Virus record (IMG/VR): IMGVR_UViG_3300027861_000087
Coordinates: 1 to 36,726 of that record
Length of the DNA: 36,726 bases
Origin: a virus
Reading direction: 5' to 3' (one strand)
The notes under the pieces are model-generated. The model was not told the DNA's origin. It ran no database searches and was given only the letters and a program-made list of their open reading frames with translations. Both the position numbers and the translations under genes were made by a program. Below are positions 369 through 36,140 of this stretch, piece by piece (positions within the stretch are counted from its first letter, which is position 1; every line of letters begins with the position of its first letter).

Positions 369-1688
369 ATGAACTTATTAGACTATTTTAAAGATGTTCT
401 AAGAGAACAACTTATATATGATAAAGATAAATCTGATCATATTATAGATACACAAGATGTAATGCTTGAAGATATCGTTGCTGTAGGTGGAGAAAATGCT
501 CCATGAGTAGAAAAAATGAATAACAATAAATTTGAAATTGTTGCTAAAACTGGTTGAATGACTGCTTATGCAGGATGAGAAGCAGGATGATTACATAAAT
601 CAGGATCTGTTTTTGGTAAATCAGAACTTGCTCCTAAATTTGTTAGAGCATACTTTGTTTTAACTCATGTTCAATTAGTTGCTGTTACTTCTAGTGATTC
701 ATCTGTAATTAATGCTTCTACTGATTATTCAGAAGAAATCAGAAATGCTATGGCTAGAGCAAAATCTAGACATTTAAGATGAGATGGTACTGGTATTTCA
801 GGTGCATTACCTGGAGATGTTGGTGTACAAACTTGAACTTCTATAGTTGTTTCAGGTAGAGCTCCTGGTACTTTCGCTTCTCATAATATTTACGGTCTTG
901 GTACTGATGAATTTATGGATGGAGAACCTGTATTATTTGGTACTAAAGCTATGCTTGATGGTGGTACTGCAATAGCTAGAGTTATTGAAACTGTTACTGA
1001 TGAAACTACTTTAAAATTAACTGCTACTGCAACTGTTTGAGCTGCTGTAGGTGCTAATAATAGAGGAGGTACTAATGCTGATACTTGGTATGTAGTAAGA
1101 GGTACAATCGCTAGTAATGAATGGGGTAAAGTACCTATGGGTATATTTGGTTTAATTGATGATGGTACTTTTGTTCCAACTCTTCAAACTAAAGTTAGAT
1201 CTACTACTCCATGGATGAAATCAATAGTTTTAGATAAAGCTAATGCTACTGCTATTATACAAGATTTTAAAACTCTTTATAATAAATTTAAAAAGTTTGG
1301 TAAAGCTAAATATTTTAAAGTATCTGAGGATGTTTACGATAAATATAGTCAAGCTGTTACTCTTACAAGTTCTGCTTTAAGAAATGCTACTGATTATAAA
1401 TCTAAACTAGGTGTAGGTCATAGTTGATTAGTATTTAACTATGGTAACTCAGGAGAAATTCCAATACTAAGTGATACTTTCTTCCCTTATGGACAAGTAT
1501 TATTAGTTGATCCATCAGTTTTCTTTGAGGCTTCTTTATTTAATGAAGACTTCATACCAGGATATTTCATGAAAGCTATAGATGCTGCAACTGAATTATC
1601 TTATGAAACTGCAAGAGGAGCTTATCTTAATTTCTGAACTTATGGTTCTAGAAAACTTTGAGCTAAAATCAACTATCAATCAGTCTAG
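369..1688 (+). CDS. major capsid protein (HK97-fold-like)
   Basis: A 439-residue protein with the composition and layout of a phage coat protein. It has an N-terminal helix region, then A-G-G-E-A-G-G-L and S-E-L-A-P-K-F-V-R-A-Y-F-V, a long Gly/Ala/Thr-rich beta middle, and a C-terminal part with P-I-L-S-D-T-F-F-P-Y-G and a YETARGAY-like segment. The length is typical for HK97-fold coats. Eleven or more Gly codons are UGA. It probably assembles the head on the portal encoded at 34225. The start is the first ATG after an A7 run, with no Shine-Dalgarno. A hairpin follows the stop, as expected for a highly expressed gene with an attenuated downstream operon. The family call rests on pattern and gene order, not on one diagnostic motif. 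Confidence 0.75.
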
Positions 1689-1733
1689 TTATCTGATATG
1701 TAGGAGAGCTTTTGCTCTCTTATTATTAGATAA
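1689..1733 (+). terminator. hairpin after the capsid gene (probable attenuator)
   Basis: GAGAGC (1704-1709), loop TTTT, GCTCTC (1714-1719) forms a tight GC-containing stem. It is enclosed by outer arms TTATCT (1689-1694) and AGATAA (1728-1733). The T tract is poor, so partial termination or 3' end protection of the capsid mRNA is more likely than complete termination. The next gene follows in the same direction. Confidence 0.6.
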
Positions 1734-1770
1734 TTAGTATCTAAATTTTTATTTTATAATATTTATTATT

Positions 1771-27706: not shown

Positions 27707-28208
27707 TTAAAGTTTAATATAATTAATTTGTTTAGGTAAATTTATTTTATAACAAATAAATATAGAATGAAAAGGAGATCATCAAGTTTTTTCTCATGCT
27801 AATATTTTTGGATTCAAATAATTAATTCTTTTTTCTGGAATAATTATTTGAAAATCTATATTTCATAATAAGTTTAAAGCCTCTACCCCCCCCCAAATGC
27901 TCTAACCTTTGCAAAAAAATAAAAGGCTTTCATAATTCAATAGATCTTTTAATAAATTTTTTATTTCAATTAAAAGGTGGATTCGTAAACCATATATCCC
28001 ATTTTTCTTTTGGCTCACTCAGTAAACAATCTATTTTATTGTTTCATACAACTTTAAAGCCTCTTTTTTCTAAAGCTCTTGCAAGGTGTCATTGTCAATA
28101 ACAAGCCTCCCAATAAGTTTGATTTCTAGGTAAAAAATCCTGAATATAGTCTAATGCTATATCAGGTGTATATAACTCGTTAAAATTCGCAAGTTTCGGA
28201 TAACTCAT
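27707..28208 (-). CDS. DNA methyltransferase interrupted at a G9 tract (frameshifted)
   Basis: An N6-adenine/N4-cytosine-type methylase. Motif I reads W-E-A-C-Y-G-Q-G-H (residues about 33-41); motif IV is F-T-N-P-P-F-N-G (about 76-83); then G-K-P-F-I-F-L-Q-R-L-E-H-L-G-G. The C-terminal family part, Q-I-I-I-P-E-K-R-I-N-Y-L and S-P-F-H-S-I-F-I-C-Y-K-I-N-L, is present but in the next frame. The break is at a run of nine G (complement of 27886-27894). As given, the first frame stops at 27822 (128 aa); with eight G it would read through to 27707 (166 aa). The protein would methylate phage DNA, perhaps against host restriction. The break may be phase variation, decay or a sequencing error. Confidence 0.75.
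27886..27894 (-). repeat. homopolymeric G9 tract (C9 on the + strand)
   Basis: Nine C in a row in an otherwise AT-rich genome, inside the methyltransferase exactly where the reading frame must shift by one base. It is the only homopolymer of this length in G or C in the window. Confidence 0.9.
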
Positions 28209-28290
28209 TTAAAAAATATTAAAAATTAAAATACTGGAGTTAAATTCTCCTTATTGCCTCACTCAGTTAATAGAGAGGCAATAGTAAAAT
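28209..28290 (-). repeat. hairpin leader module (methyltransferase)
   Basis: Word ATACTGGAG; hairpin GGAG (28236-28239) / CTCC (28247-28250); second hairpin TATTGCCTC (28252-28260) / GAGGCAATA (28275-28283). Lies in front of the methyltransferase ATG and ends at the previous gene's stop. Confidence 0.7.
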
Positions 28291-28428
28291 TTAAATTTCT
28301 TTTATAGATTCTAATTTTTCTCACAAATATTTTCACTCATTAAAAGCTATATTAAATAACACATCACCTCTAATTGAAGCCCTTATATTTTGTTTTCTCA
28401 TACTTGTTTTTACTAAAAAAGTTTTCAT
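28291..28428 (-). CDS. small hypothetical protein
   Basis: A 45-residue basic-then-acidic peptide: M-K-T-F-L-V-K-T-S-M-R-K-Q, R-G-D-V-L-F-N-I-A-F-N-E-G-K. Two UGA-Gly. Leader modules lie on both sides. Not recognised. Confidence 0.5.
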
Positions 28429-28515
28429 AATAATATAATTAAAATAATAAAATACTAGAGATTTTTTAAATTCTCCATAGATTAACTAAGTTTATATTAG
28501 TAAATCTAGCAAAAT
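28429..28515 (-). repeat. hairpin leader module
   Basis: Contains AATAATAAAATACTAGAG, GAG/CTC hairpin 1, and TAGATT...AATCTA hairpin 2 near 28478-28508, before the start codon of the gene at 28428. Confidence 0.7.
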
Positions 28516-28701
28516 TTAACAATAGATTCTAAATCCTTTTTCTTCTAAAAATGCAATTCTTTCTAAAGTAGTTTTTATTTTTTCTAATCATGCAATTTTA
28601 AATTCTTCTCATGATTCATATATAGCAAGTCATAATTCACTTTTTTTAGTTCCTCTTGATATTCTTATATCAATAATTTGTCTTTCTTTTTCAAATAACA
28701 T
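28516..28701 (-). CDS. small hypothetical protein
   Basis: A 61-residue protein with E-R-Q-I-I-D-I-R-I-S-R-G-T-K-K-S-E-L-G and a helix with E-K-I-K-T-T-L-E-R-I-A-F-L. Three UGA-Gly. Its stop is at the edge of the leader module of the next gene. Not recognised. Confidence 0.5.
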
Positions 28702-28702
28702 T

Positions 28703-28918
28703 TTAATTATAGTTAAATATTAATCTAAAACTTTTAAAATTAATTTCTTTAAAGCCTAGTTTTCTAAAATTAGTTGATTCTATCCATTTATATTTAATTC
28801 ATTTTTCTTTTAAATGTATTAAAAAATCCCCGAATTTATCACTATTTTTAAACTTTACTTGAAAGTTTTTATTATTTACTTCAATACTTTGGTATTGCTT
28901 TTGTAAAACACTTAACAT
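28703..28918 (-). CDS. small hypothetical protein
   Basis: A 71-residue basic protein, with F-Q-V-K-F-K-N-S-D-K-F-G-D-F-L-I and Y-K-W-I-E-S-T-N-F-R-K-L-G-F. Only one UGA codon. It abuts the downstream gene by 1 base without an intervening hairpin module. Function unknown. Confidence 0.5.
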
Positions 28919-29005
28919 ATATAATAAATTAATTAATAAAATACTAGAGCTTTTTAAATTCTCCACCTTGCCACCCTTTACAGAGTAGCAAAAGTAAAAT
29001 TTAAA
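28919..29005 (-). repeat. hairpin leader module
   Basis: Word AATAAAATACTAGAG (28935-28949), a GAG/CTCC hairpin, and an arm pair TTGCCACCCT...AGTAGCAA (imperfect) between the word and the previous gene's stop. Confidence 0.6.
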
Positions 29006-29377
29006 TTAATCTTTATAATCTTCTATCCATTGAATAAAAGAATCAAATTTAAATCAATACTCACTTTCTTTATACTCTTCTATATATTCAATTAATTCTT
29101 TTTTAAACATATTTATTCTAGATTCTGTATAAGATTCTGTTTTTTCTTCTTGTTGTATAATTCTTATAAATTCTTTTAAATCCTCGTTAGATTCAAATTC
29201 ATAATCAGTATCAGAACGACCATCAGTAGTATGTATCATGTTATTTCATAATATTCTATATTTATTATCTGCTACTCTTCATACTCATGAATAACCCTCT
29301 TTTAAAATTTGTTCTAAAGGTTTTCTTTTTACTCCTGTTCTTCAATTCCAAGAATTAGTTAAAATTGTTACTATCAT
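29006..29377 (-). CDS. hypothetical protein
   Basis: A 123-residue protein. N-terminus: M-I-V-T-I-L-T-N-S-W-N-G-R-T-G-V, a beta part with K-Y-R-I-L-G-N-N-M-I-H, then an acidic helix. Five UGA-Gly break it in the standard code. It has no recognised motif but is among the larger genes in this block. Confidence 0.55.
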
Positions 29378-29462
29378 ATTGCTATAATTAAAATAATAAA
29401 ATACAGAGATTTTTAAATTCTCCTTAGATCCACTAATATTATATTAGTAAATCTAGCAAAAT
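29378..29462 (-). repeat. hairpin leader module
   Basis: AATAATAAAATACAGAG, GAG/CTCC hairpin 1, TAGAT..ATCTA hairpin 2 with loop ACTAATATTATATTAGT, before the gene at 29377. Confidence 0.7.
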
Positions 29463-29573
29463 TTAAATTTTATTCATGATAGTTTTATCTTTTTTTACTT
29501 CAAATAAAGGCTTTAAAGTAATATAAAATCAAATCATAAATATAATAAATTCTAAAAATTGTATACTAAACAT
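29463..29573 (-). CDS. small membrane peptide
   Basis: A 36-residue ORF with a hydrophobic segment F-L-E-F-I-I-F-M-I-G-F-Y-I and a basic tail. One UGA-Gly inside the membrane part. Flanked by leader modules. Small size keeps confidence moderate. Confidence 0.5.
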
Positions 29574-29669
29574 AATGTATAAAATAAAATAATAAAATAA
29601 TAAAATACAGAGTTTTTTTTAATTACTCCATAGAATCTATATAATTTTATATATAAATTCTAGTAATAA
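29574..29669 (-). repeat. hairpin leader module
   Basis: Tandem AATAAAATAATAAAATAC word (29582-29611), GAG..CTCC, TAGAAT..ATTCTA hairpin 2, before the gene at 29573. Confidence 0.65.
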
Positions 29670-30032
29670 TTAAATATTGCATTGTTTAGATATTTTTAAT
29701 AATTCAATTAATATTTTTTTTTCTTTAACTCCTAAACAATTATTTAATAAATACTCACAAGTTTCTTTTATTGTATGTTTTCACTCATATATTTCTTTAC
29801 TCATTGCATTGAATCATAATATTTTTAATAATTCTATTCATTTTTCTATTGTTTTTTCTTTAGGATCTTTAATGTTTTTATTTATATATAAAAATATATC
29901 TTTCATAATTACTACTGGACTTGATACAGTTACTCAATTTTCTATTTTTAATACTCTATGTACTCAGTCAGATCATAAACCTTTAAAATCAGAATGAATA
30001 CTATTATATTCTTTTTGTGTTATTTCTTCCAT
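29670..30032 (-). CDS. hypothetical protein
   Basis: A 120-residue, helical, mildly acidic protein with H-S-D-F-K-G-L-G-S-D-G-V-H-R-V, V-I-M-K-D-I-F-L-Y-I-N-K and K-G-I-E-L-L-K-I-L-G-F. Six UGA-Gly. Function unknown. Confidence 0.55.
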
Positions 30033-30116
30033 AATATGTAAATAAATAATAAAATACTAGAGATTTTTAAATTCTCCATAGATTCACTAATATTATATTA
30101 GTAAATCTAGCAAAAT
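30033..30116 (-). repeat. hairpin leader module
   Basis: AATAATAAAATACTAGAG, GAG/CTCC hairpin 1, and TAGATT...AATCTA hairpin 2 identical in layout to the one at 28429. Ends at the stop of the gene at 30117. Confidence 0.7.
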
Positions 30117-30404
30117 TTAATTAGCTATTAGAGTACATGAGCCACAACAGTTATATACTCTAACTTCATTATTATCTAGATCAAAACTATTTCTAGATCC
30201 TGGAACTAACCAAAGCCCAACGATTCAAAAATCATGTTTTTTAGTAAAATCTATTCTTTCAGATTCTACTCTTATATTTTTTGGATCTTCTACTGAATCT
30301 ACACAGTCTATCATACCATTAAACGAACTTGTTTTTTTAATATAAAGATTATCTTTATTCTTTTTAATCCAACTTTTTAAACTTGCTCTTGTAAACTTAG
30401 CCAT
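30117..30404 (-). CDS. conserved small phage protein (N-C-C-G-S family)
   Basis: A 95-residue protein. F-T-R-A-S-L-K-S-W-I-K-K-N, S-S-F-N-G-M-I-D-C-V, F-G-I-V-G-L-W-L-V-P-G-S-R and a C-terminal Y-N-C-C-G-S-C match a family I recall in many phages (L-G-I-x-G-x-W-F-V ... N-C-C-G-S). The role is not known to me. The glycine of F-G-I-V-G is UGA. Confidence 0.65.
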
Positions 30405-30493
30405 AATATATAATAATAAAATAATAAAATATTAGAGATTTTTTAATTTCTCTATATTGATTCACTCAGTTTAGAGGGAATCAATAACAAAAA
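30405..30493 (-). repeat. hairpin leader module
   Basis: AATAATAAAATATTAGAG, GAG/CTC hairpin 1, and TATTGATTC..GAATCAATA hairpin 2 whose loop CACTCAGTTTAGAG resembles the loop of the module at 28209. Confidence 0.7.
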
Positions 30494-30805
30494 TTAAACT
30501 TTTAATAAATAATCAATTACTTTTTTTTCTGCATTAGAATCAAAATCTAAAGTATAATTATAATAATTCTTTCAATTAACTTTTCTAGTCTTTCAGATTA
30601 ACAAGCCTTTTAGTTGTAAAAAATAAGTTTGATTCATTATAGAAAACATAATAGATCTTTTAGTTTTCTTTATATCCTTTATAGCTTGTATAAAGTCTAG
30701 TTTCTGAAAGTGTTTATATTTGAATCTATCTTTTATATTATCTATACTAGATCCACTATTAAAAGTATAATATCTTAAGTTTTCAGAAGTTATATATATA
30801 TTCAT
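30494..30805 (-). CDS. hypothetical protein
   Basis: A 103-residue basic protein with F-I-Q-A-I-K-D-I-K-K-T-K-R-S-I-M-F-S-I-M and L-L-I-G-K-T-R-K-V-N-G-K-N-Y-Y-N-Y. Two UGA-Gly near residues 70-80 would truncate it in the standard code. Not recognised. Confidence 0.55.
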
Positions 30806-30828
30806 GATAAGTAAATTATAAATTAAAA

Positions 30829-30969
30829 TTAATATCAGTAGTTTTCTGATAATATAACAAGTTCAATATTAGATAGATCTTCAAATAATCTTCATTTTAG
30901 ATCCTGTAAAATGTTTTCATATTCTATATGTGAATATAAAAAACTATAATAGTCTTCTCTTAAATTCAT
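30829..30969 (-). CDS. small acidic hypothetical protein
   Basis: A 46-residue acidic ORF, E-D-Y-Y-S-F-L-Y-S-H-I-E-Y-E and D-L-K-G-R-L-F-E-D-L-S-N-I-E-L. 23 bases before the next gene, no hairpin module between the two. Function unknown. Confidence 0.5.
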
Positions 30970-31056
30970 AATAAGTAAAGTAAAATAATAAAATACTAGA
31001 GTTAATTTTTAATTACTCTATAGAATCTATATTATATATATAAATTCTAACAATAA
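30970..31056 (-). repeat. hairpin leader module
   Basis: AATAATAAAATACTAGAG (30984-31001), GAGTTAATT..AATTACTC hairpin 1, TAGAAT..ATTCTA hairpin 2. Confidence 0.7.
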
Positions 31057-31305
31057 TTAATAATTATAGTATAGATCTGAATTAGCTTTATTCATTAAAT
31101 CATTTTGTATATTATAACTAACTTCTAATTTATCTAATCTTTTAAATGAATATTGTATATTGTCCCTATATCTTTTTAATAATACTTTAAATCTATTTAA
31201 TATTTTAATATCAGAACTTAAACTTAAACTTGATTTTTTTAATCTTTTTAGATTATATATATTAAAATATAGATATTCTAGTTCTCTACTTTGTGTATCA
31301 GACAT
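31057..31305 (-). CDS. first gene of the far-right leftward block, function unknown
   Basis: An 82-residue basic helical protein (Y-N-L-K-R-L-K-K-S-S-L-S-L-S, F-K-V-L-L-K-R-Y-R-D-N, F-K-R-L-D-K-L-E-V). It contains no UGA, unlike most genes here. It is preceded by a leader module with a TGATC/GATCA hairpin (31341-31355). The nearest upstream promoter candidate on this strand is TTGACA (complement of 31817-31822). Confidence 0.6.
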   Translation of the reverse strand: MSDTQSRELEYLYFNIYNLKRLKKSSLSLSSDIKILNRFKVLLKRYRDNIQYSFKRLDKLEVSYNIQNDLMNKANSDLYYNY

Positions 31306-31694
31306 AATTTTTTATAATAAAATAATAAAATATCAGAGCATGATCTTATATGATCAGATTATTTTTTCTTTTGCTAAGATACAAAAGACTTTAAGAAGAA
31401 AACAAAAGAAGTCAAAACTTTTTTTATAGGTAAAATCAAAAGTCTTTAGTTTTTAGCAGTAGTAAAGCAAAAGATTTTTTAATAAATAAATAAAATAAAA
31501 CCCTTTCAGATTCATAAATAGTAAAATAAACAATAAAATCTATGTTTTATAGGTCTTTTGTATACAAAACTTGAACATTAACTAAACTTTTTAGCTATTT
31601 AAAGGGATAAACTAAAGATAAAAAGATTATTTCAGATGGATTTTACATGTTTCTAAAATATATTATACAACATTTAATAATTATGTATAATAAT

Positions 31695-32189: not shown

Positions 32190-33851
32190 ATGACAAATTT
32201 ATTAACAGAAAAACAAAATTATATCATAGAAAAACTATGAGATTTTAATCGGAGAATAGCGAATCTTTATTATATAGTAGATGAAGACTGAAATAAAATA
32301 AAATTTAAACCGAATTTTATACAAAGAAAAATTATTGCTGCTATAAAAAATAAAGATGACTGATATATAAGGCATATTATTTTGAAATATAGGCAAGGTT
32401 GAGTATCTACTTTATTTACTTTATTGCTTCTAGATGAATTTTTATGGGGATGAAAAAATATTTATAATGTAATTATTGCTCATGAGAGAAAATTATTAAC
32501 GAGTTTATTTAAGAAAATTAGATTTGCCCTGGATAATATAGATCCTGAATTTAGAACTTTTATACCACCGATGGATTCTGATAATGCAAATGAGCTTTTT
32601 ATTAGAAAAACGAATAACAGATTAGCTGTAACTTTAGATACTAGATGAGAAACACCAACTAGAATACATATTACTGAGTTAGCCTGGAGAGAATTTGCAA
32701 AACAAGCTAGTTTACTTTTAGCTGTAAATCCTCTGAGAAAAGCGAAAATTACAATTGAATCTACTGCAAATTGAGTATGAGATCCTTTTTATAATTTGAC
32801 CATGAAAGCTAGAGCATGAGAATGAACTTATAAGCTGCTTTTTTATCCTTGGTATATAGAAGAAAGGAATAGATCTAAAATACCATATTGATATTGATTA
32901 AATGATAAAGAAATAGATAAATGAGAATTAAAGTATAGAATAAATTATAGTGAAAAAGAAAAACAAATAAAAACATTATATGATTTAGATGATGAACAAA
33001 TTTACTGGAGAAGAACTCAAATTGATGATGCTATGGCAATGTGAGAAGATTGAAATAAAAAATTTGATCAAGAGAATCCTGATAGTATTGATACTGCCTT
33101 TGTAGCGAGTTGAACACAAGTATTTGATTTATCTTTAGATTTTAAATTAAATAAACCTGAATATGAGGTTTGAGATTTTAAGATTTTTTGAACACCTGAG
33201 GATTGAATGGTTTTTGGTATTGATACTGCTGAATGATGAAAATCATGAGATTACTCTGTAATTAGTTGAATGAATAGATCATGAAAAATTTTAATTACTT
33301 ATAAAAAAAGAGTAGAGGACTTTCAATTAGCTGAGGCAATGGATCAGATTTTGAGTTTAAAATATAAATGAAAATATTTTGTAGGTACAATTTTGATAGA
33401 AAGAAATAAATGAAGTTCCTTTGTTGCTGAGGCTAGACATTATGATTGGTTTTATTTATTACTAAAATGAAGAGATCAAACAGCTACTAGTGATGATACA
33501 AAAGAATATTATTGATTTTGGACTGGATGATGAAGTAAAGAAGTTTTAATAAGAGATTTTAGAAAATGAATATATAATCATCAATTAGAATTAACACAAG
33601 AAATATATACAGAAATATCAACTTATATATATAATAATTGAAAAGCTGAGGCTATGAGTTGAAAACATGATGATATGATAATGGCTTCTATGATAGCTTA
33701 CCATTGAGTTTTATATGAACATTTTATAGCAACTTATACAAATATAAAAATAGAAAGGAAACATGTTAATGCTTTAGAAAAATTTGATCAGGAATTGTTA
33801 AGTTGAAATTATGAACAAAAAGAATATAGTGAATGGGATGATGAATATTAA
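32190..33851 (+). CDS. terL: terminase large subunit (TerL)
   Basis: A 553-residue protein with ATPase and nuclease domains. The adenine/Walker A region is K-Y-R-Q-G-G-V-S-T (residues 66-74), matching K-x-R-Q-x-G-x-S-T; the second G is UGA. Walker B and the catalytic Glu are in R-I-H-I-T-E-L-A-W. The nuclease metal residues are in F-G-I-D-T-A-E-G-G (Asp345), I-L-I-E-R-N-K-G-S-S and K-H-D-D-M-I-M-A (Asp494). It packages DNA through the portal. It uses GCG, CCG, ACG, CGG and TTG codons more than its neighbours, a possible sign of a different origin. It lies right after the non-coding region and opens the morphogenesis operon. Confidence 0.95.
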
Positions 33852-33908: not shown

Positions 33909-34196
33909 ATGGATTTGATATTGATAATATGTATTACAAATATTGTAATAATTGGAATTGCTTTTTATATGATGATGAGAATTTTTAATAATTTAACAAA
34001 TAAATTATTGCAAATAGAAATTGTAAAAAAAGCTAAAACTTTTCAAGAAGCTAAAGAATTTTGAACTAAAGATATTGCAGCTGAACAAAAATTTGAAAAG
34101 AAAATTGTAGATGAACAAGAAAAAGCATTTGCAACAATACAAAAAAAAGAACTTACTCCTGAGGAAAAAGAAGAAGCTAACTGGAAAAATGTTTAA
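33909..34196 (+). CDS. membrane-anchored coiled-coil protein, unknown function
   Basis: A 95-residue protein: an N-terminal membrane helix (L-I-L-I-I-C-I-T-N-I-V-I-I-G-I-A-F-Y), then a long charged helix (E-A-K-E-F-G-T-K-D, E-K-E-E-A-N-W-K-N-V). Located between TerL and portal, unusual for a membrane protein; it could be a small head or spanin-like protein, or a lysis accessory. 58 bases after TerL and 28 before the portal. Confidence 0.6.
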
Positions 34197-36037: not shown

Positions 36038-36075
36038 AAAAACCATATTGCTGATCTTAGCGATATGGTTTTTTT
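36038..36075 (+). terminator. intrinsic terminator after the portal gene
   Basis: AACCATATTGCT (36041-36052) pairs with AGCGATATGGTT (36059-36070), followed by T run to 36075. Confidence 0.8.
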
Positions 36076-36104
36076 ATCATATTGCTGATGTCGGTAATAT
36101 GATA
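36076..36104 (+). repeat. second hairpin similar to the terminator stem
   Basis: ATCATATT and AATATGAT arms with GCTGATGTCGGT between. The CATATTGCTGAT part repeats the first hairpin, as if the terminator had been duplicated. No T run. Confidence 0.6.
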
Positions 36105-36140
36105 AAGTTACTTATTTAAAGCCAAATAATATTTTTTTGT

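What the first reader, a model, noticed from the sequence alone, without database searches (positions are those of the whole stretch)
28209..31365. Repeated hairpin leader module in front of small early genes
At about ten places the region before a leftward ATG has the same plan: hairpin 2 (variable sequence, conserved stem), hairpin 1 (GAG/CTC), then CTCTAGTATTTTATTATTTT and the start codon. The stems vary by compensating changes (TAGATT/AATCTA, TATTGATTC/GAATCAATA, TATTGCCTC/GAGGCAATA), so structure is kept. It is not a simple terminator, since T runs are broken. It may be an attenuator, processing site or translation element that makes each gene an independent unit. Copies of the pattern also precede rightward genes at 33909 and 36246.
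Basis: seen in the sequence. Interest (0 to 1): 0.8.

Follow-up and report, generated by a model that had tools for sequence, protein, structure and literature searches.

The report
Repeated processing-type hairpins between phage genes
A virus of an uncultured Gracilibacteria-type bacterium carries the same three-strand RNA hairpin element between eight pairs of adjacent early-type genes, and distant relatives carry it too; it is probably a cutting-and-protecting site that turns one long message into single-gene messages, much as phage T7 does, but this is inferred from sequence only.

Summary
The pattern is real. The window is a TGA=Gly (code 25) phage. Eight copies (not about ten) sit on the minus strand, each filling the gap from one gene's stop codon to the next gene's ATG. 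The lower stem shares its 3' strand with 'hairpin 1', so the two exclude each other. A covariance model finds 13 further copies in four related phages, all in the same leftward small-gene operon. Over 18 copies, 95.7% of pair cells are paired (shuffled 60.5%), 19 of 22 pairs show compensatory change, and there are 73 G-U against 0 A-C pairs, so the selected molecule is the transcript. Cutting at the bulge would leave a 5'-terminal hairpin in 18 of 21 copies. The operon's first gene and its closely packed gene pairs lack the element. Best reading: an RNase III-type processing site, working like T7 R-sites, that yields downstream mRNAs with a protective 5' hairpin. No cleavage was shown. A ribosome-sensing switch is the main rival, because the upstream stop codon usually lies in the lower stem. 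Rfam has no match.

The parts
28239..28294 (-). module 1: long hairpin (lower stem, R.G mismatch, bulge, upper stem) before gene 27822-28208
   Evidence: R2 57.5 bits, E 9e-13; upstream stop TAA 8 nt before the mismatch
28236..28250 (-). module 1 hairpin 1 GGAGaatttaaCTCC (alternative to lower stem)
   Evidence: 5'-terminal hairpin in fold
28465..28519 (-). module 2 long hairpin before gene 28291-28428
   Evidence: R2 59.1 bits
28457..28476 (-). module 2 hairpin 1
28953..29004 (-). module 3 long hairpin before gene pair 28703-28918 / 28516-28701
   Evidence: R2 59.6 bits
28946..28964 (-). module 3 hairpin 1
29412..29466 (-). module 4 long hairpin before gene 29006-29377
   Evidence: R2 60.1 bits
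29405..29423 (-). module 4 hairpin 1
29618..29673 (-). module 5 long hairpin before gene 29463-29573; third-position change carried through all three strands
   Evidence: R2 49.9 bits
29609..29629 (-). module 5 hairpin 1 GGAGT...ACTCT
30066..30120 (-). module 6 long hairpin before gene 29670-30032
   Evidence: R2 63.6 bits
30059..30077 (-). module 6 hairpin 1
30442..30497 (-). module 7 long hairpin before gene 30117-30404 (U-A instead of C-G above the mismatch)
   Evidence: R2 56.8 bits
30434..30453 (-). module 7 hairpin 1 AGAGA...TCTCT
31008..31060 (-). module 8 long hairpin before gene pair 30829-30969 / 30494-30805
   Evidence: R2 47.2 bits
30998..31019 (-). module 8 hairpin 1 AGAGT...ACTCT
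27822..31305 (-). leftward operon of 11 small genes (code 25) that the modules divide; first gene 31057-31305 has no module
31309..31335 (-). U-rich leader motif TGATATTTTATTATTTTA before the first gene, without the module
1685..1739 (+). likely analogue in the late operon: hairpin overlapping stop TAG of gene 369-1688, unrelated sequence, same alternative 5' hairpin TTAGAT...ATCTAA
   Evidence: single case, no covariation test

Best explanation
Each copy is an intergenic RNA processing element. In the polycistronic leftward transcript, the end of one gene and the start of the next leader fold into a 20-24 bp hairpin with a fixed mismatch and bulge. A double-strand-specific ribonuclease, most likely the host RNase III, cuts the 3' strand at the bulge. 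The upstream mRNA keeps a 12-14 bp hairpin at its 3' end. The freed strand (GG[A/U]G...) refolds with CUC/UUC downstream into hairpin 1, which then sits at the very 5' end of the downstream mRNA and shields it, followed by an unstructured U-rich ribosome-entry leader and the ATG. Shown here: the hairpin, its conservation, that it acts as RNA of the coding strand, the mutually exclusive pairing, the position between genes, and RNase III in the host family. Inferred: the cut, its position, the enzyme, and the protective role.
For: 18-copy alignment: 95.7% of cells paired against 60.5% shuffled; covariation 0.928 against 0.261; slid versions at most 0.23; 19 of 22 pairs with two-sided change. G-U 73 against A-C 0 over upper and lower stems, window copies alone 17 to 0, so selection is on the transcript. 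Constant geometry: 20-24 bp in most copies, R.G mismatch, C-G or U-A, one-base bulge. RNA beginning at the GG next to the bulge forms a 5'-terminal stem in 18/21 copies, against 1-7 at starts on its 5' side (14 one base 3' of it) and a mean of 5.6 after shuffling. Column 49 pairs with both the lower stem (UA, GC, AU) and the hairpin 1 arm (AU, CG, UA; permutation p 0.0005). Absent before the operon's first gene and in the 2- and 24-nt gaps. RNase III (TIGR02191) in 44 of 48 host-family genomes. T7 R0.3, R0.5, R1, R1.1, R1.3 and R4.7 have similar size, and the early ones lie between stop and start; a bulged R1.1 gives single-strand cuts while a fully paired variant is cut on both strands (PMC8708148).
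Against: No RNA data: no cleavage, no 5' end and no RNase III dependence was seen. The upstream stop codon lies in the lower 5' arm in most copies (7/8 in the window), which the processing model explains only as compactness but a ribosome switch predicts. Hairpin 1 is weak in the AT-rich window (-1.5 to -4.6 kcal/mol) and poor or missing in 3-4 of 21 copies. The sequence boxes known for E. coli RNase III were not tested for this host's enzyme.
Confidence: 0.52

Rival explanations
1. A ribosome-sensing switch. The ribosome ending the upstream gene sits on the stop codon in strand 1, opens the lower stem, and lets strand 2 pair with strand 3 (hairpin 1). Upstream translation thus sets the structure of the downstream leader and tunes its translation, decay or transcription.
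For: Stop codon inside or next to the lower 5' arm in 7/8 window copies and most relatives; the two folds differ by only 3.1 kcal/mol on average (0.6 to 7.3), and blocking strand 1 gives upper hairpin plus hairpin 1 in most copies; three-strand covariation.
Against: Neither fold covers the ATG, which lies about 25-55 nt further on; hairpin 1 is not followed by a continuous U run and no module scores as a terminator; two copies have the stop well upstream (window 28995 at -13, L026 705 at -57).
Confidence: 0.22
2. A passive stabiliser or insulator (REP-like): the hairpin blocks exonucleases and stops ribosome or structure interference between genes, without being cut.
For: Intergenic hairpins directly after stop codons are typical 3'-end protectors (established knowledge); hairpins also follow late genes.
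Against: Does not explain the invariant mismatch, bulge and GGAG, or why hairpin 1 begins exactly at the bulge.
Confidence: 0.13
3. A binding site for a phage RNA-binding repressor that shuts down all early genes together.
For: Conserved mismatch-bulge core (GC / UGG[A/U]G) on variable stems looks like a protein recognition site.
Against: The first gene of the operon lacks it; the sites are far from the ATG; no regulator was identified among the small genes.
Confidence: 0.09
4. A DNA-level element: recombination site like integron attC, single-stranded hairpin promoter like those of phage N4, operator or promoter.
For: Palindromic sites between small same-direction genes; the module persists while the window's small genes have no detectable relatives in the other phages.
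Against: 73 G-U against 0 A-C on the transcript strand; a hairpin read on the template strand predicts the opposite; sigma-70 matches not above shuffles (44 against 44.1).
Confidence: 0.03
5. Chance words in AT-rich sequence or an alignment artefact.
For: The window is about 20-29% G+C.
Against: Copies in relatives at 24-31% G+C with up to 55% G+C in the hairpin itself, covariation far above shuffles.
Confidence: 0.01

Closest known systems
RNase III processing sites of phage T7 (R0.3, R0.5, R1, R1.1, R1.3, R4.7)
   Same: Hairpin with upper stem, internal irregularity and lower stem; early sites lie between stop and start codon in the early operon; in R1.1 irregular pairing gives a single-strand cut, with maturation and protection of mRNAs (PMC8708148).
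   Different: T7 has larger internal loops and recurring upper-stem sequence; here the defect is one mismatch plus one bulged base, sequence is free, the stop codon is built into the stem, and the 3' strand also forms a second hairpin. Cleavage not shown. Unrelated hosts and phages.
5'-terminal leader hairpin of T7 phi10 mRNA (from memory)
   Same: 5'-terminal hairpin followed by an A/U-rich leader.
   Different: In T7 it starts at a promoter; here the sequence upstream varies freely, so a promoter is unlikely and the end would arise by cutting.
Transcription and translation attenuators with 1:2 and 2:3 pairing
   Same: Three strands with mutually exclusive pairing, a translated region at strand 1.
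   Different: No terminator or sequestered ATG in either fold; repeated at up to eight junctions of one operon.
Integron attC sites
   Same: Variable palindromes with extrahelical bases between small genes, stop codon near the 5' arm.
   Different: Selection is on the transcript strand as RNA (G-U only); no integrase was sought here.

Membership tests
T7-type RNase III processing site | hairpin of about two helical turns with an internal irregularity | tested here: met
   20-24 bp in most copies with R.G mismatch and bulge
T7-type RNase III processing site | lies between genes of a polycistronic phage transcript | tested here: met
   polycistronic transcription itself is inferred
T7-type RNase III processing site | host has RNase III | tested here: met
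   TIGR02191 in 44/48 genomes of the family of the MAG that holds a relative
T7-type RNase III processing site | cut by RNase III at the internal irregularity | not testable with these tools
   needs enzyme assay or 5'-end mapping
T7-type RNase III processing site | proximal, middle and distal box sequences | not tested
   boxes are defined for E. coli enzyme; preferences of the Gracilibacteria enzyme are unknown
Intrinsic terminator | stable stem followed at once by a U run | tested here: not met
   no module called; only one terminator-like site in the region, elsewhere
Attenuator (1:2 / 2:3) | mutually exclusive helices supported by covariation | tested here: met
Attenuator (1:2 / 2:3) | one fold ends transcription or hides the start codon | tested here: not met
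DNA hairpin element (attC, N4 promoter) | structure selected as DNA, no bias towards transcript-strand wobble | tested here: not met
   73 G-U, 0 A-C
Any Rfam family | score above gathering threshold | tested here: not met
   no match at the modules

The most novel reading that the evidence does not exclude
A previously undescribed phage RNA class: a stop-codon-embedded, three-strand switch placed at nearly every gene junction of an operon, in which the ribosome ending one gene decides whether the junction is cut or refolds, so that each gene's message is matured only according to translation of its neighbour.
Probability: 0.2. Interest if true: 0.82.

Novelty: new variant of a known kind. Interest (0 to 1): 0.62.

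Why it matters
It would give the first view of how phages of uncultured, TGA-recoded Gracilibacteria handle their mRNAs, and show that T7-like cutting of early messages into single-gene units exists, probably independently, in a distant phage lineage. The three-strand plan (one cut giving a 3' hairpin to one mRNA and a 5' hairpin to the next) is a compact design that can be tested in a test tube and used in synthetic operons. The covariance model is ready for annotating such phages, where most small genes have no recognisable relatives.

Tried and rejected
Terminator reading: rejected (a hairpin with a T run, the kind a terminator has, is found near 36050 after the portal gene). Promoter or operator: sigma-70 matches equal shuffles, variable upstream sequence, and the first gene lacks the module. 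DNA recombination or N4-like hairpin promoter: rejected by G-U against A-C. DROSHA mGHG motif resemblance: looked up and dropped, since it needs a non-G mismatched base. DNA pattern searches of IMG/VR for the exact window motif found nothing; the type-B pattern found only known relatives plus L036, whose match lies in a standard-code coding region and was judged chance. Portal search found no relatives. Weak hit L006 5786-5847 (E 0.016) is a long hairpin after the portal gene and was not counted. Full-record search of relatives with R1 found nothing although the same loci match directly, so its first-look filter is not trustworthy for this model. The window's leftward region is not similar at DNA level to any of 50,697 phage records.
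Full report
WHAT THE WINDOW IS. The 36,726-base window is a virus record. Large frames open only when TGA is read as glycine (code 25), the code of Absconditabacteria and Gracilibacteria. The terminase at 32190-33851 is about 42% identical to those of other code-25 phages, one of them in a contig of a Gracilibacteria MAG (L026). From 31305 down to 27822 runs a leftward operon of eleven small genes. Only a methyltransferase-like one has a recognisable family above E 0.001.

THE OBSERVATION. Eight intergenic gaps of 82-96 nt in this operon hold the same element. The gaps before 28701 (1-2 nt) and 30805 (about 24 nt) do not, and neither does the leader of the first gene, 31305. A covariance model from the eight finds them at E 1e-8 to 1e-12 and nothing else in the window below E 0.1.

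THE ANATOMY. Read 5' to 3' on the transcript: strand 1 (usually containing the upstream stop codon), a purine, C or U, an upper hairpin of 12-14 bp, one bulged U (rarely A), G or A, G, strand 2, a short A-rich loop, strand 3 (CUCU), a U-rich stretch, ATG. Strand 1 pairs with strand 2 (lower stem, 8-9 bp). The purine faces G as a constant mismatch. The C-G pair between mismatch and bulge becomes U-A in two copies.

RELATED PHAGES. Model hits and a geometry descriptor found copies in L008 (the same phage as L003 and L004), L022, L024 and L026, in their leftward small-gene operons next to the terminase. A second model (R2) built from 18 copies recovers 6, 3, 1 and 3 copies in these four phages, with E-values from 1e-13 to 1e-4. 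Eighteen of the 21 copies were used to build R2, so for those the score is by construction; the three further L008 copies (7429, 6818, 6148) were not. Among 48 genomes of the host family only L026's own phage contig scores well, apart from one weak match at E 0.03. The window's small genes have no detectable relatives in these operons, while L008, L022 and L024 share several. The element has thus outlasted the genes it separates.

TESTS. On the 18-copy alignment 95.7% of cells pair, against 60.5% after shuffling; the covariation score is 0.928 against 0.261, and sliding the partner by one to three columns gives at most 0.23. Nineteen of 22 pairs have changes on both sides. G-U pairs number 73 and A-C pairs none (window copies alone 17 to 0), so the selected strand is the transcript. 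Some relatives were picked with a rule that allows G-U, which biases that count; the window copies were not. Hairpin 1 scores 176 against 110 (sd 8) for shuffled downstream sequence. At one column of strand 2 the base matches both its strand-1 and its strand-3 partner through A, U and C versions (permutation p 0.0005). If RNA starts at the GG just after the bulge, 18 of 21 copies begin with a stem at base 1. Starts up to eight bases 5' give 1-7, the next base 3' gives 14, and other starts 3' give 0-3; shuffled sequence averages 5.6.

MECHANISM. The simplest reading of a long imperfect hairpin whose 3' strand is designed to refold, starting exactly at the bulge, is a cut there. The host family has RNase III (44 of 48 genomes). 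T7 R-sites refolded here have the same size and place between stop and start (site coordinates other than R1.1 are from memory, and those given for R0.7, R3.8, R6.5, R13 and R18.5 did not show a clear R-site hairpin in my folds). R1.1 is cut on one strand, while a fully paired version is cut on both (PMC8708148), so a conserved mismatch and bulge suits a single cut. Such a cut would leave a hairpin at the 3' end of one mRNA and hairpin 1 at the 5' end of the next. The absence of the element before the operon's first gene and in closely packed gene pairs fits processing and does not fit a promoter or a translation signal needed by every gene. The U-rich stretch is a separate element: TAGTATTTTATTATTTTA about 10 nt before ATG also precedes 31305 and 36246.

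WHAT SPEAKS FOR A SWITCH. The stop codon is inside the lower stem in 7 of 8 window copies, and the two folds differ by only about 3 kcal/mol. A terminating ribosome could thus favour hairpin 1 and protect the junction from cutting. Neither fold hides the ATG or makes a terminator, so an effect on expression would have to go through stability or processing. The two ideas can be combined.

WIDER PATTERN. Late-operon gaps show similar stop-overlapping hairpins of unrelated sequence: window 1685-1739, L022 14018-14076, L026 14333-14396, and L045 16187-16240 (R2 E 0.003). The window one also has an alternative 5' hairpin. These are single cases without a covariation test.

LIMITS. There is no transcript data. 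The related set is five phages, and copies inside one phage are not independent. Rfam has no match and the one relevant phage paper found does not mention such hairpins (PMC10746230); subscription literature was not searched.

Noticed in passing
window 27886-27895: A run of about nine C (G on the coding strand) inside the methyltransferase-like gene 27822-28208, a possible slippage or phase-variation site; the gene matches only part of its family profile (phrog_799).
   Followed up: no
window 1685-1739 (+): Long hairpin overlapping the stop codon of gene 369-1688, followed by an alternative 5' hairpin TTAGAT...ATCTAA: the same three-strand plan with unrelated sequence in the late operon.
   Followed up: partly
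window 36050-36125 (+): Two strong hairpins in tandem after the portal gene, the first followed by a T run: a likely true terminator.
   Followed up: no
window 31335, 36218, 6198: U-rich motif TAGTATTTTATTATTTTA about 10 nt before ATG also at genes without the module; no Shine-Dalgarno-like sequence was noticed before the starts inspected, so it may be the ribosome-entry signal of this phage.
   Followed up: partly
L006 5786-5847 (+): Very long near-perfect hairpin after the portal gene of a related code-25 phage.
   Followed up: no
L024 7714-7775 (-): A different stop-overlapping long hairpin at the junction that in L008 and L022 carries the module, suggesting replacement by an unrelated hairpin of like size.
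   Followed up: no
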